A stretch of 21,899 bases of DNA, taken from positions 1-21,899 of the IMG/VR virus record IMGVR_UViG_3300010883_028703; one strand, 5' to 3'. Within the stretch, counting starts at the first letter, position 1, and the number at the start of each line of letters is the position of its first letter. Made by a program: the position numbers and the translations under genes. A model generated the notes under the pieces. The model saw only the letters and a list, made by a program, of their open reading frames with translations. It was not told the DNA's origin and searched no databases. Below are positions 5,959-16,452 of this stretch, one piece after another. This DNA is from a virus.

Positions 5959-6358
5959 GTTTCTTCCTCACTATCTTGTTGATTATAGTCATAAGGTTGG
6001 GGTTGTCTATCAAGGCTCCTGCGAGTCCATTGCCTAGGGCTTGAACTACGTTCTCCTCTCTACCTAGCTTGAGGGACTCTCGGCAACCAGTCATCTCCAC
6101 TAGTACGTGGAGTATCTCGTGCAGCAGGGTCTCAAGGGCGATGGAGTCAGCCAGCTCACTGGACAGGGCTATCTCTAGCGTAGAGGGGTCGAAGTAACCG
6201 AAGGCGTGAGCTTTCTTGCCTAGCTCTGTCGCTGAGTCAACGTGGGACTTAGGTAGCGTCCACAGCTCCTTGCGTACTGAGACGGAGAGTTCGTGCGCTC
6301 CTATCTTCAGTGTCTTGCCGTCAAGCGGCCCGAGGACATTGTTCTTCTTACTCGGCAC
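5942..6358 (-). CDS. Small HEXXH zinc metallopeptidase-like protein
   Basis: This 138-residue protein has TLLHEILHVL with the zinc motif H80-E81-xx-H84. A likely third ligand is E101 or E102 in GREENVVQALGNGLAGALIDNP, the layout of minimal gluzincins that occur as small cytoplasmic phage proteins. There is no signal peptide. The start is GTG at 6358, overlapping the upstream stop by 11 bases, with AAGGTGA upstream. The substrate is unknown. The basic tail (RKKRERKK) may contact nucleic acid. It shares its operon with a nuclease fusion. Confidence 0.75.
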   Translation of the reverse strand: MPSKKNNVLGPLDGKTLKIGAHELSVSVRKELWTLPKSHVDSATELGKKAHAFGYFDPSTLEIALSSELADSIALETLLHEILHVLVEMTGCRESLKLGREENVVQALGNGLAGALIDNPNLMTIINKIVRKKRERKK

Positions 6359-7064
6359 TGGGAGTCACCTTGGGCTTGGCCTTCCTGCTCCCCCCACAAT
6401 ATGCTACCCCCAAGTGCTTAGCGGCGTGGTTGCCTGACGTTATGATGTCTACGTTGAGGAAGTCATCTCCTCCTCTGACGACGGAGAGTGCGCGTCCAAA
6501 TTTCCCGCGACCGAAGTATATGAGCTTGAGGTCTTTGTGTTCGTCGAACCACTTAATCGTGTATGCCTTGGCAACCTCTCCTTCGGGCTTCTCTGCTCCG
6601 CGTGTCTCCGGGGTGTCAACCCCTATGAGGCGAGTGCGTATAAGCGTGTAGGTATCGAGGCCGAGGTTTATGAGCAGGTCTTGGGTGTCTCCGTCCACAA
6701 TTCGCACCACACGCTCAACAGGGAAGATGCCTACGGGGTTCTTGCGGCAAGCTACGTCTGCGATGGTAGGCGAAGGGGGCACGGAGAGGGCGAAGGCTGG
6801 TGTGACGAAGGAGAGGGCCAGCAGCATAGCTACGACGGGCTTAGCGAGCCTGCGCTTGCTTTGGTAGTTCTGGTTCTTCTCTTTGACCTTGTCTTTGTTC
6901 TCGGAGGCCCAGTTGTTGTAGTATTCTGGGTTGTCTTTGCGCCATGCCTTCGCGTAGGTGCGTCGGCAGTCCTTACAGGGTTGGACGGGTTTACCCTTTA
7001 CAAGGTAGAACGCTTCCACGCTGTTAATCTCGTCACATTTACTGCACTTCTTACTCAGAGCCAT
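6348..7064 (-). CDS. Zinc-finger / membrane segment / thermonuclease (SNase) fusion
   Basis: This 238-residue protein has three parts. Residues 5-50 carry CSKC (C7, C10) and CKDC (C30, C33) followed by basic helices, the zinc-finger type often seen next to phage endonuclease VII/HNH domains. Residues about 75-94 are a hydrophobic segment ending TPAFA, like a signal peptide or membrane anchor. Residues 115-224 are a staphylococcal-nuclease domain: VDGDT (123-127), R145, DTPE (150-153) and GKFGRAL with R191, covering the known catalytic Asp/Arg/Asp/Glu/Arg set. ATG 7064 follows AGGAGG. The likely topology is zinc finger in the cytoplasm and nuclease outside, or an internally started secreted nuclease. 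Neither is proven. Confidence 0.85.
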   Translation of the reverse strand: MALSKKCSKCDEINSVEAFYLVKGKPVQPCKDCRRTYAKAWRKDNPEYYNNWASENKDKVKEKNQNYQSKRRLAKPVVAMLLALSFVTPAFALSVPPSPTIADVACRKNPVGIFPVERVVRIVDGDTQDLLINLGLDTYTLIRTRLIGVDTPETRGAEKPEGEVAKAYTIKWFDEHKDLKLIYFGRGKFGRALSVVRGGDDFLNVDIITSGNHAAKHLGVAYCGGSRKAKPKVTPSAE

Positions 7065-7106: not shown

Positions 7107-7673
7107 CTAGCAGAAATTGCGCCAATAATCAGTGTCAGACGAGGCCTCTATCAAGCGCAGGTGAGTAGGGCCGTTCCGAATCTTAGACTCGGGAGCGATG
7201 TAGCAGAATTCAATGATATAGGCTGTGGCACTCAGTATAACAGCCGGGGTGGGCTTGCTGCTCAGCTTAATGAGCAGTTCTGTCGCAGGCGGGAGTTCAG
7301 GCACCGACAGGCAGCCCAGCTCAGGGAAAGGGGCTTTACCGTGCTTACGGCAGGCTCTACCTTGGACACCCTCTACATCAATGGAGAAAAAGGGTCTAAT
7401 CTCTATCTGGGGGCGATACCTGTGGGTCGAGCCTCGCTCTGGGTATCGGGCGTTATACAGGTGGCTGTCCATGTCGAACAGCCGCCTCTGGTACTCGGTG
7501 TAGGTGGTGAAGCTCATGCTCATGTCGCCAAGGCTGTTCTCCATCAGTTGCTGGCCCCATGGCCCTCCTCCCTTCCGACCATTAGGGTCGGGGTACTGGG
7601 AGGCGGGAGTACGAACGCGGTACTCTGCGTACTCTTTCATGGTATCAATAGGTATCGGTTTTGCAGGAATCAC
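7107..7673 (-). CDS. Hypothetical protein
   Basis: This 188-residue protein is of no family I recognise. It has a Pro/Gly/Arg-rich N-terminal half (PDPNGRKGGGPWGQQL near 28-43), a Tyr- and Arg-rich middle, and a more hydrophobic C-terminal part (PAVILSATAYIIEFCYI). No signal peptide or catalytic motif is seen. The GTG at 7673 lies seven bases after a -10 box with no Shine-Dalgarno. An ATG 33 bases downstream (MKEYAEYR) is an alternative start, also without a Shine-Dalgarno. It sits between the terminase ATPase gene and the nuclease-fusion gene. Confidence 0.6.
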   Translation of the reverse strand: MIPAKPIPIDTMKEYAEYRVRTPASQYPDPNGRKGGGPWGQQLMENSLGDMSMSFTTYTEYQRRLFDMDSHLYNARYPERGSTHRYRPQIEIRPFFSIDVEGVQGRACRKHGKAPFPELGCLSVPELPPATELLIKLSSKPTPAVILSATAYIIEFCYIAPESKIRNGPTHLRLIEASSDTDYWRNFC

Positions 7674-7680
7674 TTCTTCT

Positions 7681-7709
7681 ATTATAGCACAAATATCGGC
7701 TTGTGTCTA
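7681..7709 (-). promoter_or_regulatory. Promoter overlapping the terminase ATPase stop
   Basis: TAGACA (7709-7704, one base off TTGACA), a 17-base spacer and TATAAT (7686-7681) preceded by TGTGC. The -35 contains the TAG stop of the upstream gene. Confidence 0.7.
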
Positions 7710-8582
7710 GCCTTCTACGTCTAACCTGATGTCGAAGCCGTCCATCGCCCTAGCGTAGGCTTCGGCGTACTTATCGCCTATGATGACCTCTTGCTCGATG
7801 CTCTCGAAGTCCTCACTGACGCGCTGGACGAGGACTCCCCACCTTTCACGGACTTCTGGGTCGTTGATTATCTCACCGGCTAGGTCACGCTCGTGCCACC
7901 GGGTAGCAATCATGATGGCGCTGCCTGTAGGCTCAATACGAGTCAGCCAGACAATCTTGAAGGTGTTGTTGATAGCGTCACGCTTGGCAGGTTGCGCGAT
8001 GACAGAGTTATAGTCTCCCAAGTCATCTGCGAGCAGGTAGTCACAACGACCACCAATACCTGTGGAGGTCACACCCTTCGCGTCGATGCTGGCATCCTTA
8101 GCGTTGGTTGTCCGCTCTACGAACAGTCTGTGCTTCGTCCACTCACGTCCCTCGTCAGGCTTCAGCTTAGGGAAGATAGCCTTGACGTCTTCGTCGTGCG
8201 CTATGTAGGTACGGATAGAGGCGAGCCTCTCCTTAGCTGAGTCATCTGACAGGCCGATGAGCTTGAGGCGTATGTTGGGGTTGGAACCTATGAGGTACAC
8301 TGGCAGGGCGATTCCAAAGAGCTGGGTCTTGCCGCTGCCCATTGGAGCCAGCACGAGACAGTTAAGCTCGTTCTCTAGGCAGAAGCGCATGTGGCCTATC
8401 CACGCCCTGTGTAGTGGCGCGAGCGTGATAGACTTCCCGGTTACCTCGTCCTTAATAGCCATCTCACAGAAGTCCTCGAACGACTCCCTTGCCCTCTGGA
8501 GCTTGCGCTCCTGCTGCATACCCTCAGCCTCAATGGCTAGAGCTTCTAGCTCTTCTAGGTCTTTGAGTTGCTGAGTCTTCAC
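7707..8582 (-). CDS. terL: Terminase large subunit, ATPase half (split)
   Basis: This 291-residue protein holds only the DNA-packaging motor ATPase. Walker A is APMGSGKT (80-86 region), Walker B DYLLADD (181-187) with the catalytic acidic residue at its end, and the coupling motif region is IATRWHERDLAGEI (225-238). A typical TerL runs another 200-250 residues into an RNase H-like nuclease. Here the frame stops soon after RWGVLVQRV at a TAG followed at once by a promoter. The missing half is encoded separately at 10336-11094; together the two give about 543 residues, a normal TerL size. The GTG start overlaps the upstream stop (GTGA at 8579-8582). The ATPase identity is sure; that the protein works with the separate nuclease is inference. 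Confidence 0.9.
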   Translation of the reverse strand: MKTQQLKDLEELEALAIEAEGMQQERKLQRARESFEDFCEMAIKDEVTGKSITLAPLHRAWIGHMRFCLENELNCLVLAPMGSGKTQLFGIALPVYLIGSNPNIRLKLIGLSDDSAKERLASIRTYIAHDEDVKAIFPKLKPDEGREWTKHRLFVERTTNAKDASIDAKGVTSTGIGGRCDYLLADDLGDYNSVIAQPAKRDAINNTFKIVWLTRIEPTGSAIMIATRWHERDLAGEIINDPEVRERWGVLVQRVSEDFESIEQEVIIGDKYAEAYARAMDGFDIRLDVEG

Positions 8583-9184
8583 CCCAGCGGCCTTTTTATC
8601 ATATCCTTCGCGGGTACGTCCTCTACGGTTTCAACTTCCACATCAATCGCGTTTAGCTTGTCCTGTGCTATCCTGACGCGCTCGTTGATGTCCTTCTCGC
8701 TCATGTTGCTGCTAACGTCGTGGTCGTGCGTATGCTCGACCTGTGTGACGTTGTCAGCGCCTACCATCCCCTGAATCAGCTTGAGGGCTTGCCCTATGCT
8801 GGCTGTCAGGTCTCTGACCGAGGCGACCTCAATCTTGTCACTGTCGAGCAGGGCTGTGGACGCGGCTTGGATGAACGTAGTGAGCTTGAGGACTGTTTCC
8901 TTCTTGCGGTCTTGGTAGAAGCGCATGAGTTCATCGTCGTCTTCGAAGACCTTGGGCAGCAGTCCCTTCTTGTAATCGCTGTATAATTTCCAAGACATAT
9001 CGGTTATGTCAGGGGCGCTACCGTACAGTGCGAGGTCGGTGAGTTGTTCGCCAGCCTCGTCTAGGTGCTTCTCCAACTCGTCAGCCTTCATTACAAGGTG
9101 TGAGTCGTCGGGCAGGTTGTCAAGGTCTATCTCGATAGTCTTCTTGTCGAGCTTCGGCCCTTTCTTCTTTGGTATCTTAGCCAT
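8579..9184 (-). CDS. Candidate small terminase subunit or packaging accessory protein
   Basis: This 201-residue, acidic, helix-rich protein lies directly upstream of the terminase ATPase gene with a GTGA overlap, the usual place for TerS. It has a basic start (MAKIPKKKGPKLDKK), a helical middle with YSDYKKGLLPKVFED and TTFIQAASTALLDSDKI, a His/Asp-rich stretch (VEHTHDHDV) and a helical C-terminus. I cannot see a clear helix-turn-helix, so TerS is a guess from position. Its ATG lies eight bases inside the upstream HNH-fragment gene. Confidence 0.5.
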   Translation of the reverse strand: MAKIPKKKGPKLDKKTIEIDLDNLPDDSHLVMKADELEKHLDEAGEQLTDLALYGSAPDITDMSWKLYSDYKKGLLPKVFEDDDELMRFYQDRKKETVLKLTTFIQAASTALLDSDKIEVASVRDLTASIGQALKLIQGMVGADNVTQVEHTHDHDVSSNMSEKDINERVRIAQDKLNAIDVEVETVEDVPAKDMIKRPLG

Positions 9185-9389
9185 TTTCTTTCCTCCAGTA
9201 ACGTTCGACTAGCTCGTGGACGCAAAAGGTTGTGTATTTGTGGTTACTGTAGAGACTGACCACTTCGTAGCCTTCGCTATTCACGCTAGTAGTTAGCTCA
9301 CCATTTCTCTGGGAGAATACGGTGCCAGATGCGGTAAGACAGTACTCAGGGTGAGACTCGATTGTCCTGACCGTTGCGTTCTTTCTCAT
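9177..9389 (-). CDS. Stand-alone HNH-endonuclease N-terminal-like fragment
   Basis: The 70 residues follow the start of phage HNH homing endonucleases: EYCLTASGTVFSQ, then GYEVVSLYSN and the helix FCVHELVERYW, as in the y.vs..G.v.s / GY..v.L / VHrLVa pattern. The HNH nuclease core that should follow is absent. The frame ends at RKENG where the candidate small-terminase gene begins. It may be a decayed homing endonuclease or a reused DNA-binding module. The ATG lies six bases after a TATAAT. Confidence 0.6.
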   Translation of the reverse strand: MRKNATVRTIESHPEYCLTASGTVFSQRNGELTTSVNSEGYEVVSLYSNHKYTTFCVHELVERYWRKENG

Positions 9390-9395
9390 ACTTCC

Positions 9396-9424
9396 ATTAT
9401 AGCATAGATTCTAAACGAACACAA
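9396..9424 (-). promoter_or_regulatory. Promoter of the HNH-fragment/TerS/ATPase operon
   Basis: TTGTGT (9424-9419), 17 bases, TATAAT (9401-9396) preceded by TGC; then GGAAGT and the ATG at 9389. The start codon falls at the expected transcription start. Confidence 0.65.
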
Positions 9425-9437
9425 GCCAAAATAGTAT

Positions 9438-10304
9438 TTATTCATAGGAGTCGGGTACGTTGGTGCAATACCCACACATGGGCTTGACCTTCTCTAGTCC
9501 GTTGTAGTCAAGGGGGGCAGCGTACCGCTGCTTAGTTCCAAGCGCGATGAACTTCCCGTCCAGTGTCCAGTACAGCTTCGTAGGCTTTGTCTGCCCACAG
9601 GTCGCGCTCTGACACTTGTCCTTCCAGAAGAGGTGCATGTAGTCGTCAAGGATGGCTTGGAGCCTAGGGATGTAGAAGCCATGTTCCATCGCACAGTCGT
9701 CGATAGTCTGCTGGCAGTTGAACCCTACGAGTCGCTGCGGGTGCTGGCCGGGGCCAGCGGGTATGATGTGGCAGGCTCTTGCGAATGCTTTCCACGTCTT
9801 CCTGACGTAGGTTCCGGCTATAACCTCTAGGTTGTCCACCGAGAGGTTGTGGGGGTTTCCGTCTTTGTAGCTGAAGCTGTCTACCACGCCAACGGGGAAG
9901 AAGTTATTAATCATCAGGTCGATGCCACGCACTTGATGCTGGTGTCCGTTCTGCTGCATCTTACGGCTAACACTAGCGCCAAGCCCTTTCATCTCCCATT
10001 CGAGAGGGGTTGGGTTGACTGCCTCGGGGTAATGGATTAGTTGGCCGCCTCGGGTGACTGCGTACTTGCTCCACCCTAGAGGAGAGTAGGCGGTGTTTTG
10101 TTGCTGTCTGGCGAAGGCTTCTCGGTGGGCTTGTCGCTGCACTACTTTTAGTGCTTCGGCACGCTCGAAGTTACCGTCTAGCTCTGCTGACATTATAGCT
10201 CCTCTAGCCAACGAGTCGAAGTCACTGTCGTCGCTGGCGAGGTCGGTAGGATACCAGACCTCGTTATACAACTTTACTGGTTTTGGTTCGACTACGTTCT
10301 TCAT
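9438..10304 (-). CDS. HNH-like DNA-binding/endonuclease-related protein
   Basis: This 288-residue protein has an N-terminal charged helical region, then YAVTRGGQLIHYPEA (81-95), a helix near 126-136 and YKDGNPHNLSVDNLEVIAG (146-164). The last element is the HNH_3 core pattern (H.dGnp.nn..dNLE). The first His of the HNH triad is replaced by Tyr146, so cleavage activity is doubtful. C231, C236, C277 and C280 form a possible C-terminal zinc site. It separates the two terminase halves. A former homing endonuclease that kept DNA binding is a reasonable reading. Confidence 0.65.
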   Translation of the reverse strand: MKNVVEPKPVKLYNEVWYPTDLASDDSDFDSLARGAIMSAELDGNFERAEALKVVQRQAHREAFARQQQNTAYSPLGWSKYAVTRGGQLIHYPEAVNPTPLEWEMKGLGASVSRKMQQNGHQHQVRGIDLMINNFFPVGVVDSFSYKDGNPHNLSVDNLEVIAGTYVRKTWKAFARACHIIPAGPGQHPQRLVGFNCQQTIDDCAMEHGFYIPRLQAILDDYMHLFWKDKCQSATCGQTKPTKLYWTLDGKFIALGTKQRYAAPLDYNGLEKVKPMCGYCTNVPDSYE

Positions 10305-10310
10305 CTTATG

Positions 10311-10339
10311 AGCGTATCACAAAGCAAGGCTTGTGTCAA
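10311..10339 (-). promoter_or_regulatory. Promoter of the HNH-like gene
   Basis: TTGACA (10339-10334) overlaps the stop of the nuclease gene; 17 bases; TACGCT (10316-10311) with TGA before it; then CATAAG and the ATG at 10304. The -10 is imperfect, the -35 perfect. Confidence 0.65.
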
Positions 10340-11094
10340 ATTACGCGAACGCGCTTGGCTGTGGATACCTTGACCTGAGTCGCGGCTATCCGTGAGAAGA
10401 ACAGCGCCATGAGAGCGTCGTCGTGTCTGGCGACCCCGTAGTTAATCATCTCGTTTTCGAGGATTTGCATTTGCTCCCTAGTTTTTCCTTCAGCCCAAGG
10501 GATAGTCCACTTGGTTTGCTCTATCTCAACGGCGAGGCGGGGGAGGCCACTCTCTAGGTTGTGCTTACTGATAGCTGAGGTGGCGAAGGGGTGGACGGGG
10601 ATAGACGTGGTTCTCTTGATTTCCTGCACGAACGCATCCTGATACGCCACGTTCTCCACACAGACGAGGGTAGGGTTGAACGCCTCGTCCCACTGCTCTA
10701 CTATCTCAAGCTGGGATTTGAACGTCAGACCCCTAGAGTGGTGCATGCCGATTATCCTACGCTTGAAGGATGGGCGCTCAACCGCTATAGCTATCAGGGT
10801 GAAAAAGTCACCGCCTGACTCAACGCCCGCTATGGCCAAATCCACTCCGAAGAAGACCGACCACTTCCCTTGGCTGAATATCTTGCAGTCGGGGTCGCCG
10901 GGGTAAAGTAGTTCGGCCTCGAAGTCCTTGCACTTGTCAACGTGGGCTGGCTGAATCAACATGTCGTCTGAGGATATGGCGCGCTGTCTCCAGCCCCTTG
11001 AGAACTCTCTTTCACCTATCTCTGCGCGCTTTCGTTTCAAGGCCACAGAATCCCATTTCGACCAAAGGTCTATCTCTTTCGTTAATCGAGCCAT
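10336..11094 (-). CDS. terL: Terminase large subunit, nuclease half (split)
   Basis: The 252-residue product lacks any Walker motif and corresponds to the C-terminal half of TerL. LWSKWDSVALKRKRAEIG (10-27) and FSRGWRQRAI match the linker after the ATPase. FFGVDLAIAG with D85, VCVENVAY with E147 and ARHDDALMALFF with D225/D226 give the acidic triad of the RNase H-like nuclease that cuts concatemers. The ATG at 11094 sits six bases after a -10 box; an in-frame extension to 11211 would run through the promoter and the repeat region and is rejected. In transcription order it precedes the ATPase gene, with three genes between: the reverse of the domain order in a fused TerL. Confidence 0.88.
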   Translation of the reverse strand: MARLTKEIDLWSKWDSVALKRKRAEIGEREFSRGWRQRAISSDDMLIQPAHVDKCKDFEAELLYPGDPDCKIFSQGKWSVFFGVDLAIAGVESGGDFFTLIAIAVERPSFKRRIIGMHHSRGLTFKSQLEIVEQWDEAFNPTLVCVENVAYQDAFVQEIKRTTSIPVHPFATSAISKHNLESGLPRLAVEIEQTKWTIPWAEGKTREQMQILENEMINYGVARHDDALMALFFSRIAATQVKVSTAKRVRVI

Positions 11095-11100
11095 ACTTAT

Positions 11101-11130
11101 ATTGTAGCATACATTTGCACCACCTGTCAA
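11101..11130 (-). promoter_or_regulatory. Promoter of the terminase nuclease gene
   Basis: TTGACA (11130-11125), 18-base spacer, TACAAT (11106-11101) preceded by TGC, then ATAAGT and the ATG at 11094. A leaderless transcript is predicted. Confidence 0.82.
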
Positions 11131-11153: not shown

Positions 11154-11185
11154 CAAACTGACGAACTGTAGTACTATGGGGTGAC
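11154..11185. repeat. Imperfect inverted-repeat arm (partner 11364-11395)
   Basis: It starts with CAAACTGACGA and ends with GTACTATGGGGTGAC (11171-11185). The reverse complement of 11364-11395 matches at about 26 of 32 positions. Confidence 0.75.
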
Positions 11186-11200
11186 CCTATTTGACGAACT

Positions 11201-11219
11201 AGTCGGGGCAAACTAACGA
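11201..11219. repeat. Outer inverted repeat, left arm
   Basis: AGTCGGGGCAAACTAACGA, a perfect 19-base inverted match to 11435-11453. Confidence 0.97.
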
Positions 11220-11250
11220 AAGCTGATATTCTCTACAAGGGGGTGGGTGG

Positions 11251-11272
11251 CAGTAGGGGCAAACTGACGAAG
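11251..11272. repeat. Inner inverted repeat, left arm
   Basis: Twenty-two bases match the reverse complement of 11383-11404 with two mismatches. The core GGGGCAAACTGACGA (11256-11270) is exact. Confidence 0.95.
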
Positions 11273-11363
11273 TTGACTTAAACTCCTCCTACCCCCTATC
11301 CTTATTATTATTATTATCTAAGAATACTAGGGGGGGTATAAATGAAGAAGAATGACGCAGTGT

Positions 11364-11404
11364 GTCACCCTACAGTACCATACCTCGTCAGTTTGCCCCC
11401 ACTG
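11364..11404. repeat. Composite right arm of the inner and imperfect inverted repeats
   Basis: Bases 11383-11404 pair with 11251-11272, and 11364-11395 pair with 11154-11185; the two pairings share the TCGTCAGTTTG core. Confidence 0.85.
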
Positions 11405-11434
11405 TCGCATACCCCCCCTAAGCAGTACCCACTC

Positions 11435-11453
11435 TCGTTAGTTTGCCCCGACT
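11435..11453. repeat. Outer inverted repeat, right arm
   Basis: TCGTTAGTTTGCCCCGACT, the exact reverse complement of 11201-11219. Confidence 0.97.
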
Positions 11454-11512: not shown

Positions 11513-11551
11513 AGATGTATAGTGTGGCTAAGGCTGCGAGGAGGATTACTA

Positions 11552-13036
11552 ATGGCTCTTATAGACCAAATACGAAAGATTACAGGCGTCCGACGAGCAG
11601 ACCGCCGTATCGCTTCGGTTGATACTGAAGAAAAATCCTCCGCTGCTGCTCGTCTTATACACGAGGACACGAACCACGGAGCCTCCAACATCTTCCAGCC
11701 CCCCTCCTCGGGACAGGGGTATGGCGACCTAGGCATCTCCGGCGACCAGAGCCATGACACCATGCTCGGTCAGTACGCCCGGAGTCTCTGGGTTTACATC
11801 GCCATCAACCGCATCACGAACGCGCTGAATCAGATTTCACTGAGAGTAGTAGACAAGCGCAAGAAAGGCAAAGCTAACGATGAGGTCAAGATAGGCCAAG
11901 GACTCGTTAAGCTCCTTGAACAGCCGAACCCTCATACAACTCGCGTTGAATTCCTTGAGACCATCATTCAGCACCTGCTGCTGACTGGAAATGCGTTCAT
12001 TGAAAAGGCCGAGACGGACAGCCGTGGCCGACCTCGCGAGTTGTACATCCTTAACCCCAAGAACATGGTCGTGATTCCTGACCGCAAGAACTTCATCAAG
12101 GGCTACCGATACGTAGTCAACGACAAGACTATATCCTTCCCCAAGGCAAGCATCATTCACATCAAGTTGCCTGACCCGCGTGGGGAGAGCAGATACGGAC
12201 TGTCACCCATACAGGCAGCCCGTAGCATGATTAACACTGACCACCAAGCAAGAAGCTGGAACACGTCGTATTTCAACAACGCGACGTGGCCCTCCGGTAT
12301 CATCACCTCGGAAGAGGCGATGAGTGAAACTGAGTTTAGGCGAATGAAACGCGAGCTGCGCCAGAACTATGAGGGCACCAGTAAGGTTGGTAAGGTACTG
12401 GTCTTAGAGGGAGGCTTGAACTGGCAGCAGACAACGCCGAACCCCAAAGACCTCGACTGGCTGAACACCCTGAAGAATGCACGTGAAGAGATTCTCTCGC
12501 TCTTCGGCGTGCCACCCTCAATCGCAGGCGTATTTAACCAAGAGTCTAGCAGTGGACGTAGCGCAGGTGTCCGCGACCAGTCCATGCAGTTCTGGACGAA
12601 TACTGTCAACCCGCTCCTAGAGCGCGTCCTCGTCAGGCTCAACCTTGAACTCTCAGACCTCTTTAGCGAGAACTACGAGATAGTAGGTGACACCGATAAG
12701 ATTCCCGCACTCAAGGATACCGTCGAGATGCAGCTTGGCAAGGCTGAGGCGTTCAAGACGCTGATAGACGCAGGCTGGCCGCTCAACGACGCGCTTGCCG
12801 AGTTCTACCCCTCAGTCAAACCTTTCAAGCACGGAGACAACCCTCTGCCCGCGCTCAACTTTAATGGTGAGGCAGACAAGGCTGCTGCTGACGCCGCGAG
12901 CGCTGCCGCTTCTGTCGCCACCGACTCTGCTGCTGTCGCCGCTGAGACCGCCGCAACTGCTGTTGCCGCCGCAGGTACAGGAGAGAAGCCTAAGAAGGAC
13001 AAGCCCAAGAAGGGTGAAGCGGATGGAGATAAGTAG
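11552..13036 (+). CDS. HK97-family portal protein
   Basis: The 494-residue protein matches HK97-type portals, the dodecameric ring through which DNA enters the head. It has SLWVYIAINRITNALNQI and KLLEQPNPHTTRVEFLETII, then LLTGNAFIEK, LPDPRGESRYGLSPIQAA, and SLFGVPPSIAGV with QFWTNTVNPLLERV. The ATG at 11552 is preceded by GAGGAGG at the right distance; a GTG 30 bases earlier lies in the leader. Residues about 440-494 are an Ala-rich then Lys-rich low-complexity tail, unusual for the family. The gene overlaps the next by 14 bases. Confidence 0.95.
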   Translation: MALIDQIRKITGVRRADRRIASVDTEEKSSAAARLIHEDTNHGASNIFQPPSSGQGYGDLGISGDQSHDTMLGQYARSLWVYIAINRITNALNQISLRVVDKRKKGKANDEVKIGQGLVKLLEQPNPHTTRVEFLETIIQHLLLTGNAFIEKAETDSRGRPRELYILNPKNMVVIPDRKNFIKGYRYVVNDKTISFPKASIIHIKLPDPRGESRYGLSPIQAARSMINTDHQARSWNTSYFNNATWPSGIITSEEAMSETEFRRMKRELRQNYEGTSKVGKVLVLEGGLNWQQTTPNPKDLDWLNTLKNAREEILSLFGVPPSIAGVFNQESSSGRSAGVRDQSMQFWTNTVNPLLERVLVRLNLELSDLFSENYEIVGDTDKIPALKDTVEMQLGKAEAFKTLIDAGWPLNDALAEFYPSVKPFKHGDNPLPALNFNGEADKAAADAASAAASVATDSAAVAAETAATAVAAAGTGEKPKKDKPKKGEADGDK

Positions 13037-14623: not shown

Positions 14624-14652
14624 TGTAATTGGCTGAGATTCCATGCTATACT
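14624..14652 (+). promoter_or_regulatory. Promoter of the metalloprotease-dockerin gene
   Basis: TGTAAT (14624-14629), 17 bases, and TATACT (14647-14652) preceded by TGC, then GGAAGT and the ATG at 14659. No Shine-Dalgarno is possible in a six-base gap, so a leaderless mRNA is predicted. Confidence 0.72.
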
Positions 14653-14658
14653 GGAAGT

Positions 14659-16452
14659 ATGAATAAAACAATACTCACCGTACTGAGCATCTTAGCCTCT
14701 GCCTCCGTCGCACATGCTTCGCTTACTGGCCCCGACGTAGTCGTGCCAACACAGAAGCTAGACGCTAACACTGGTCGCTACATCGAAGTGCTGGACGACG
14801 GCACGCATTCAATAGCAACCATTGAGTCCGACATCATCTACGAACGGGTTCAAACTGAGCCTGCTCACGGACGCACCCGCGTCAACGCCCTCCCGCCTGT
14901 GTGTGAGTGTTCAATTCCGAACATGGGTAGTAAGGGCGCTCGTGTTGACGTCATATACGTCCACGAAGACCCCACCGACCCTCTAACCCCTTTCAGAGAG
15001 TCAGTGTTCAACTGTGCGGCAGCCCGCATGACGAGCTTCTTTGACTCACCTATACCCATCCGCGTCTCCGTGACTTGGCGTGACATGGGCGGCTCGGCTG
15101 GTGGAGGCGTACTAGCCTCCTCTCAGACTGGTGGCTACGTCCGTGGCTTCCCTGAAGCCCCCGACCCCGACATCTACTACCACTGGTCACTCGCTAACGC
15201 TATCGCTGGGCGTGCAGTAATAGGTGGAGAGCTGACCAAAGACCTCATCCTAAACTTCAACACACGAGTAGACCGCCCCGGCTTCTTCGGAGACCGTGGC
15301 TGGGGTTACTCCTGCGACGGCACAGACGGCGGCAACCCTAGCTCCTTCGACCTACCTACCACTGTCTACCACGAGATAGCTCACTCTATGGGCTTCTCCT
15401 CTCTCGTACACAAAAGCACAGGCAAGTTTCCCACCTGCCCCGCTAACTCAGTCGATGGTTGCCCTGACGCTTATGGTAGATTCCTCGGTGTCAAGATGAA
15501 CATAGGAGGCGTACCAAGAACGTCAATGTTCCCTGACATGCCATCCCTTGACCGCGCCGCTGCTATCATCAGTGAGACCCTCGCCTTCATCTCCCCTGAG
15601 ACGGACGCCCTGTGTGCTGGCTATACGGCAGGTTGCACTGGTGGCCCTAGAGCCGCTGGTGTTATGCCTATCTACTCGCCCAACCCAGTAAGAGGTGGGT
15701 CGTCGGTCGCTCACTACGACACTATCTTAACCCCTAGCGAGGTGATGGAGCCGTTTGCCACTGGCATCGGCCACGACCTCCATGGTACTATAGTGCTGCT
15801 CGACAAGGTAGGCTGGTCTGGTACGCTAACAGAACTACCGCCCCCGCCTCCCCCGCCCCCGCCCGCGCCGGGAGGCACCTGTGGTGACCTCAACGACGAC
15901 GGACGGATTGGGGTTGGAGACGCGCTGAGCCTGCTCCAAGCCACCATAGCTCTCCCCGGCCCATGCGTGCCCTTCATCGACAAGCTGTGTGACGCAGACG
16001 GTAACGGTGTCCTCACCTTGAACGACGCCATCCGCGTGCTTAAGGTAGTAGTTGGTGTTCCCTTGGCCACACTAGACTGCCCGGTAGCACCTGTGATGGT
16101 CAACCGTGCGAGGGTCACCTCAAATGAACTGTTCGGTGGAGTCATGTTCAGGCTTGAGTACCCCAGCAACCGCACCCTGTCAGATTGTAACTACGCCATA
16201 GCAGGATGGGACATATCGGTAGAAGACCACAAACCCGGTAACGCCTTTAACGGCACCCCAGCCACCACTACTGTCGCTGCTATTAGCGTAGACGGTGTGC
16301 AAGGGCCAGTCACACTGGTAGAGTGTAACGAGATAACAGGAGCAGCAGGAGAGTTGAGAGGCAACCAAGTTGACCTGTTCTTACTCGAAGCGTTTAGTAC
16401 GGACGATACTTTGCTCTCGCCTAGTGTGCTGTTCGACGAGAGTCCTAAGTAG
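14659..16452 (+). CDS. Secreted zinc metalloprotease with dockerin-like domain
   Basis: This is a 597-residue modular protein. Residues 1-20 are a clear signal peptide (MNKTILTVLSILASASVAHA). Residues about 90-390 form a metalloprotease domain with YHEIAHSMGFSS: zinc ligands H238 and H242 and the following Gly-Phe of metzincin-like enzymes. HYDTILTPSEVMEP (352-365) supplies a plausible Met-turn region. A nine-proline linker (394-402) follows. Residues 408-466 hold two calcium-loop repeats, DLNDDGRIGVGD and DADGNGVLTLND, as in dockerin type I. A beta-rich, Cys-containing C-terminal domain (475-597) closes the protein. Many cysteines suggest disulfides outside the cell. It sits between the prohead protease and the capsid gene, under its own promoter. 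Whether it is a virion part or cargo is unknown. Confidence 0.88.
   Translation: MNKTILTVLSILASASVAHASLTGPDVVVPTQKLDANTGRYIEVLDDGTHSIATIESDIIYERVQTEPAHGRTRVNALPPVCECSIPNMGSKGARVDVIYVHEDPTDPLTPFRESVFNCAAARMTSFFDSPIPIRVSVTWRDMGGSAGGGVLASSQTGGYVRGFPEAPDPDIYYHWSLANAIAGRAVIGGELTKDLILNFNTRVDRPGFFGDRGWGYSCDGTDGGNPSSFDLPTTVYHEIAHSMGFSSLVHKSTGKFPTCPANSVDGCPDAYGRFLGVKMNIGGVPRTSMFPDMPSLDRAAAIISETLAFISPETDALCAGYTAGCTGGPRAAGVMPIYSPNPVRGGSSVAHYDTILTPSEVMEPFATGIGHDLHGTIVLLDKVGWSGTLTELPPPPPPPPPAPGGTCGDLNDDGRIGVGDALSLLQATIALPGPCVPFIDKLCDADGNGVLTLNDAIRVLKVVVGVPLATLDCPVAPVMVNRARVTSNELFGGVMFRLEYPSNRTLSDCNYAIAGWDISVEDHKPGNAFNGTPATTTVAAISVDGVQGPVTLVECNEITGAAGELRGNQVDLFLLEAFSTDDTLLSPSVLFDESPK

What the first reader, a model, noticed from the sequence alone, without database searches (positions are those of the whole stretch)
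7707..11094. Terminase large subunit split into two genes in inverted order
The ATPase half (7707-8582: Walker A, Walker B, coupling motif) and the nuclease half (10336-11094: D85, E147, D225/D226) are separate genes with their own promoters. On the minus strand the nuclease gene comes first and three genes lie between, so a simple frameshift, intron or intein cannot explain it. Together they make about 543 residues, one normal TerL. Two intervening genes are HNH-like, which suggests homing-endonuclease-driven breakage followed by rearrangement. A working two-protein motor would be a notable variant of the packaging machine.
Basis: partly seen in the sequence, partly recalled or inferred. Interest (0 to 1): 0.85.

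Follow-up and report, generated by a model that had tools for sequence, protein, structure and literature searches.

The report
Phage packaging motor split into genes
This uncultured phage makes the two working parts of its DNA-packaging motor, the ATP-driven engine and the DNA-cutting scissors, from two separate genes, and a sister phage carries the scissors gene on the opposite strand; this matters because the two parts are one chain in almost all tailed phages and must be joined in phage T4 for DNA to be moved.

Summary
The ATPase half (7707-8582, 291 aa) and nuclease half (10336-11094, 252 aa) of a large terminase are separate genes, nuclease first on the minus strand, with three genes between. 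They match adjacent, non-overlapping parts of one fused-TerL profile; the break lies in the interdomain hinge. Misassembly is very unlikely: contig L002 has the same split, order and strands at 72-84% DNA identity. L003 has the same split, but its nuclease gene lies on the portal's strand, in an operon behind an HNH endonuclease gene, and an intein interrupts Walker A of its ATPase half. Both halves keep all motifs and evolve under strong purifying selection. No fused TerL was found on the three contigs, though all are fragments. Best reading: a two-protein TerL acting in trans. It is not categorically new: Arthrobacter phages KellEzio and Kitkat have two TerL-related genes (ATPase first), and phage ctLwi270 appears to have a third kind. 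New here are the nuclease-first order, the strand flip between sister phages and the uncoupled expression signals. In T4 the hinge is essential for translocation, so a natural hinge-less motor makes that requirement testable. Breakage by homing endonucleases is plausible, not shown.

The parts
10336..11094 (-). TerL nuclease half (RNase H/RuvC-like), 252 aa, D85/E147/D225-D226; starts in the hinge just before the 'LWP' motif of fused TerLs
   Evidence: PHROG 31692 E 2.7e-14, PHROG 38 (positions 487-696) E 1.5e-11, Pfam Terminase_6C E 2e-7; alignment to fused TerLs; dN about 0.16 with dS saturated or 2.6 against relatives
11101..11130 (-). promoter-like TTGACA-18-TACAAT with TG before the -10 box; the -10 box ends 6 bases before the ATG, so the mRNA is probably leaderless
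   Evidence: pattern plus open frame found 2 times in the window, 0.13 expected in first-order Markov controls
9438..10304 (-). 288-aa conserved protein, HNH_3-like; the probable catalytic His is Tyr in the window and L002 but His in L003
   Evidence: L003 homologue hits PHROG 959 HNH endonuclease E 2.2e-6 and HNH_3 at E 0.026; alignment A3
9177..9389 (-). 70-aa HNH-family remnant (N-terminal part only); not seen at this place in L002 and L003
   Evidence: PHROG 959 E 1.3e-9, profile positions 4-70 of 138
8579..9184 (-). 201-aa protein, probable TerS (by position only); its stop codon overlaps the start of the ATPase gene
   Evidence: 84-87% identical in L002/L003; overlap GTGA/ATGA in all three; no trustworthy family match
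7707..8582 (-). TerL ATPase half, 291 aa: Walker A 82-86, Walker B about 183-187, coupling motif about 227-231, then a conserved C-terminal tail
   Evidence: PHROG 38 E 4.6e-35 and PHROG 4758 E 2e-20, NCBIfam T7-type TerL E 2e-11, below its cut-off; dN/dS about 0.05
11154..11445 (.). array of five CAAACTRACGA repeats, three on + and two on -, between the divergent nuclease and portal genes; six CAAACTRACRA copies in L002, none in the held part of L003's contig
   Evidence: 5 found, 0.04 expected
11522..13036 (+). portal protein, divergent from the nuclease half here, co-oriented with it in L003
   Evidence: Pfam Phage_portal E 1e-67

Best explanation
A two-gene large terminase working in trans. 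One TerL gene of an ancestor was cut in the hinge between its ATPase and nuclease domains; each half has proper start and stop signals and is kept by selection. The ATPase half is made in a translationally coupled pair with the probable small terminase; the nuclease half is made from its own leaderless promoter (window, L002) or in an operon with an HNH gene (L003). The two proteins are expected to meet at the portal, the ATPase ring pumping DNA and the nuclease subunit binding to it without a covalent link to make the cuts that start and end packaging. Shown: the split, its conservation, intact motifs, selection on both halves, the strand change of the nuclease gene. Inferred: co-assembly, non-covalent coupling and the role of the 201-aa protein as TerS.
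For: Consecutive matches to one TerL profile and a break exactly in the hinge. Same split in two further contigs, in both orientations of the nuclease gene. Strong purifying selection: ATPase dN 0.03-0.05 against dS 0.9-1.05; nuclease dN 0.06 against dS 0.66 for L002-L003, and dN 0.16 with dS saturated or 2.6 for the window pairs. An intein with both splice ends intact in Walker A of L003's ATPase half, expected only in a gene whose product is needed. No fused TerL on any of the three contigs. Both halves fall in the same broad group of TerLs (BSP7, phiH, SJC03, 268TH002, KellEzio type) in separate trees, as expected for halves of one ancestor, with modest support 86/93 and 71/95. Precedent in Arthrobacter phages.
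Against: All three contigs are incomplete, so a fused TerL elsewhere is not formally excluded. No protein or packaging data. In T4, ATPase and nuclease domains without the hinge keep their activities but lose translocation (PMC9958956), so a split motor must have another coupling that sequence cannot show. Structure predictions failed (pLDDT 41), so no interface could be examined. In a rank test the two halves had opposite nearest relatives (rho -0.67), though that set was chosen from hits to either half and is biased.
Confidence: 0.72

Rival explanations
1. The ATPase half packages alone and the nuclease half acts off the motor, as a free maturation nuclease or resolvase that cuts concatemers; there is no two-protein motor.
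For: Separate expression signals and even opposite strands; phi29-type motors translocate with an ATPase whose nuclease domain is vestigial (PMC7672431, title and abstract). The nuclease half diverges faster than the ATPase half (78% against 93% identity).
Against: The nuclease half keeps the hinge-side segment LWSKWDSVALKRKRAEIGEREF that belongs to TerL's interdomain region, and that segment is largely conserved in all three contigs.
Confidence: 0.2
2. The two halves are relics; a complete TerL works elsewhere in the genome.
For: The contigs are fragments of 12.9, 21.9 and 30.4 kb.
Against: Purifying selection on both halves and all catalytic residues kept; only half-matches in a PHROG 38 scan of all three records.
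Confidence: 0.05
3. Full-length TerL is rebuilt by trans-splicing of RNA or by a split intein.
For: HNH-type genes and, in L003, an intein lie at the locus.
Against: No intron family matched; the ends of the halves show no intein motifs and have ordinary stop and start codons; the start of the nuclease half is preceded by conserved initiation signals.
Confidence: 0.03
4. The halves come from two different TerL lineages, making a chimeric motor rather than a broken one.
For: Best relatives differ: ATPase half nearest to Sejanus/ReqiPine5 TerLs, nuclease half to SJC03 and KellEzio; grouping the window's nuclease with the Sejanus clade is rejected, p-AU 0.0003.
Against: In trees both halves fall with the same divergent group, and among true fused TerLs such mismatches occur too. 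Long branches make either placement unsure.
Confidence: 0.15
5. Assembly error.
For: None found.
Against: Two contigs from other samples give the same split; L002 is collinear with the window through the whole block.
Confidence: 0.01

Closest known systems
Arthrobacter phages KellEzio, Kitkat, BeatusComedenti, DanielleIgnace (cluster AT, Kelleziovirus and kin): separate 'terminase large subunit, ATPase domain' and 'nuclease domain' genes
   Same: TerL split into two genes at nearly the same place (nuclease half begins shortly before LWPE), with several small genes between; their nuclease halves are among the best annotated matches to the window's (E 4e-12; 6e-12 with L002)
   Different: ATPase gene comes first, all genes on one strand, one intervening gene is a RusA-like resolvase rather than HNH-like; ATPase halves only 21% identical. 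A single shared split is neither shown nor excluded (p-AU 0.29 on the nuclease, 0.05 on the ATPase)
Phage ctLwi270 (MW202554.1): two genes both annotated 'terminase large subunit'
   Same: ATPase part and Terminase_6C nuclease part in separate genes
   Different: ATPase first, one 62-aa gene between, an intein-like insert in the first gene (by eye), break after the linker rather than before it
Fused TerL of phage T4 (gp17), T7/Pam1/mycobacteriophage types
   Same: All ATPase and nuclease motifs
   Different: One polypeptide with a hinge that T4 needs for translocation (PMC9958956)
Phage ICP1 terL with intron and neighbouring homing endonuclease; nucleotide reductase gene split by a homing endonuclease (both in PMC10448857)
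   Same: Homing elements target terL; one essential gene is known to work as two peptides after such a split
   Different: ICP1 terL is rejoined by RNA splicing; here the parts are out of order and, in L003, on opposite strands

Membership tests
Phage large terminase (TerL) | Walker A, Walker B and coupling motif of the ATPase | tested here: met
Phage large terminase (TerL) | RNase H-like nuclease with the acidic triad | tested here: met
   Terminase_6C E 2e-7; D85, E147, D225 aligned with fused TerLs
Phage large terminase (TerL) | both domains in one polypeptide joined by a hinge | tested here: not met
   separate genes in three contigs; the pair is a split form of TerL
Phage large terminase (TerL) | DNA translocation and cutting activity at the portal | not testable with these tools
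   needs biochemistry
Kelleziovirus-type split TerL | two TerL genes, break at the hinge | tested here: met
Kelleziovirus-type split TerL | common descent of the split | tested here: inconclusive
   fused SJC03 groups with KellEzio type in the nuclease tree at 80/70; one clade of split forms not rejected there, p 0.29, borderline for the ATPase, p 0.05
Kelleziovirus-type split TerL | gene order ATPase then nuclease on one strand | tested here: not met
HNH homing endonuclease (window 288-aa and 70-aa genes) | complete HNH motif | tested here: not met
   70-aa gene covers half the profile; 288-aa protein has Tyr where L003 has His (position by eye)
HNH homing endonuclease (L003 6460-6912) | HNH domain above curated cut-off | tested here: met
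   Pfam HNH E 3.5e-13; homing activity not tested

The most novel reading that the evidence does not exclude
A natural DNA-packaging motor in which ATPase and nuclease are separate, independently regulated and genetically mobile subunits that couple without a covalent hinge, so that nuclease subunits could be exchanged between phages or be present at a different stoichiometry from the ATPase ring.
Probability: 0.35. Interest if true: 0.8.

Novelty: new variant of a known kind. Interest (0 to 1): 0.58.

Why it matters
In T4 the hinge joining the two domains of the motor protein is reported to be essential for translocation, and a leading model has the nuclease domain pull the DNA (PMC9958956). 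A phage group that lives with the domains on separate proteins, made from separate and even oppositely oriented genes, offers a natural test: either the domains couple without a covalent link, or the nuclease domain is not needed for pulling in these motors. It also offers a ready-made two-part terminase for in vitro work, and a case of an essential gene broken at a hot spot of homing elements without killing the phage.

Tried and rejected
AlphaFold2 on each half with its 2-3 relatives gave pLDDT 41 and was not used. Sequence search of solved structures found no TerL. Scans of genome contigs with the ATPase and the portal found no relative, so no host or prophage is known. Viral contigs gave only L002 and L003 as close relatives by four different proteins (with the single nuclease sequence found none), plus a distant portal relative (L014) whose TerL looks fused. 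No megablast match in 50,697 phage records. The chimera test by score ranks was set aside because the comparison set was selected on the halves themselves; trees were used instead. Intron search in Rfam was negative. Literature searches for a dedicated paper on split TerL found none in the held library; only one sentence in PMC5513430.

Full report
What is there. The window is itself the whole virus record, 21,899 bases. On the minus strand, in order of transcription, lie: a TerL nuclease half (11094-10336), a 288-aa protein (10304-9438), a 70-aa HNH-family fragment (9389-9177), a 201-aa protein (9184-8579) and a TerL ATPase half (8582-7707); the portal gene starts divergently near 11.5 kb, followed by prohead protease and capsid genes. 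The ATPase half matches PHROG 38 positions 254-470 and the nuclease half positions 487-696, so the two are neighbouring pieces of one TerL. Aligned with fused TerLs, the ATPase half runs through the stretch that follows the coupling motif (WGVLVQRVSED, compare Pam1 WEVLDLPAISE) and then ends in its own tail; the nuclease half begins just before the LWP motif (LWSKWDSVALKRKRAEIGEREF, compare Pam1 ALWPEWYPIEALERIKATVGPREW). The break is in the interdomain hinge, and no motif is lost.

Not an artefact. Two contigs from other samples hold relatives. L002 is collinear with the window through this block at 72-84% DNA identity and has the same order and strands, with three extra genes where the window has the 70-aa fragment. 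L003 has the split too, but its nuclease gene (6459-5701) points the other way: it follows an HNH endonuclease gene and precedes the portal by 61 bases on the portal's strand, while the 288-aa, 201-aa and ATPase genes keep their orientation relative to one another. The L002 and L003 nuclease halves are 91% identical, so the strand changed among close relatives. One inversion of the stretch between the 288-aa gene and the portal would explain it (inference).

Both halves are under selection. ATPase: dN 0.03-0.05, dS 0.9-1.05. Nuclease: dN 0.06, dS 0.66 between L002 and L003; dN 0.16 with dS saturated or 2.6 for the window pairs. L003's ATPase half is interrupted within Walker A (APMG/SGKT) by an intein with Hint and LAGLIDADG domains and intact Cys and His-Asn/Ser ends; such an insert is expected only where splicing restores a needed protein.

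Expression. The nuclease gene has TTGACA-18-TACAAT (TG before the -10 box) ending 6 bases before its ATG, so its mRNA is probably leaderless; the same arrangement precedes the 288-aa gene and, in relatives, the HNH gene, and is rare by chance. The ATPase gene has no such sequence; its start codon overlaps the stop of the 201-aa gene in all three contigs. In L003 the nuclease gene has no promoter-like sequence of its own and starts right after the HNH stop codon.

Origin. HNH-type genes flank the split in all three contigs (70-aa fragment and 288-aa protein in the window, 288-aa protein in L002, a full HNH gene plus the 288-aa protein in L003), and homing endonucleases are known to collect at terminase genes (35% of T5orf172 neighbourhoods in PMC10448857). 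That makes breakage by a homing element plausible. It is not shown: the window's HNH-like genes look decayed, and no intermediate was found.

Same ancestor or chimera. Score ranks gave the halves different nearest relatives, but the comparison set was biased by how it was drawn, and fused TerLs show such mismatches too. In separate maximum-likelihood trees both halves fall with the same group of divergent TerLs (BSP7, phiH, 268TH002, SJC03, KellEzio type; 86/93 for the ATPase, 71/95 for the nuclease), which favours one broken ancestor; long branches leave this open.

What is known. [quoted passage not shown] relatives are annotated with an ATPase-domain and a nuclease-domain gene, and the genome ends of KellEzio and Kitkat could not be determined. 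ctLwi270 has two TerL genes as well. So split TerLs exist in at least three arrangements. The present one differs in gene order, in the strand change between sister phages and in its homing-element setting. I found no paper in the held library that studies a split TerL experimentally.

Why it could matter. In T4 gp17, ATPase and nuclease domains without the hinge keep their own activities but lose translocation (PMC9958956). The phages here have no covalent hinge linking the two. Either they couple the domains without a covalent bond or they pump DNA without the nuclease domain. Both are testable.

Noticed in passing
window 11154-11445: Five CAAACTRACGA repeats in mirror arrangement around an AT-rich centre (TAATAATAATAATAA-like); six CAAACTRACRA copies in L002 at 1545-1895; none in the held part of L003's contig. 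Could be an origin, a packaging site or an operator.
   Followed up: partly
L003 8714-10630: Intein with LAGLIDADG endonuclease between Gly and Ser of the Walker A motif (APMG/SGKT) of the TerL ATPase half, within a few residues of known mycobacteriophage TerL intein sites (PMC5050341).
   Followed up: partly
L002 4180-4841: A heavy-metal-associated (HMA) protein and a MerT-like mercuric transport protein lie inside the phage's packaging block.
   Followed up: partly
window about 11101-11130 and 10311-10339; L002 about 1919-1948; L003 about 6919-6948 and 7126-7155: Near-identical leaderless promoter-like sequences (TTGACA-17/18-TGnTAnnnT, ATG six bases on; approximate ranges) before the nuclease, HNH and 288-aa genes; they could also serve as short homologies for rearrangement.
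   Followed up: partly
window 14629-16452: 607-aa protein with a HEIAHSMGF zinc-protease-like motif and dockerin-like repeats (by eye), between the prohead protease and major capsid genes; no Pfam match.
   Followed up: no
L019 2291-4828 (phage ctLwi270): An apparently unrecognised split TerL: ATPase part with an intein-like insert and a separate Terminase_6C nuclease gene.
   Followed up: partly
window 6348-7064: Staphylococcal-nuclease-like protein with an N-terminal endonuclease VII-like segment, conserved in L002 and L003.
   Followed up: no
L003 12868-13533 and 17160-17834: Two related genes, the first an HNH_3 plus helix-turn-helix protein with the same leaderless promoter; neither is seen at the matching place in the window.
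   Followed up: no
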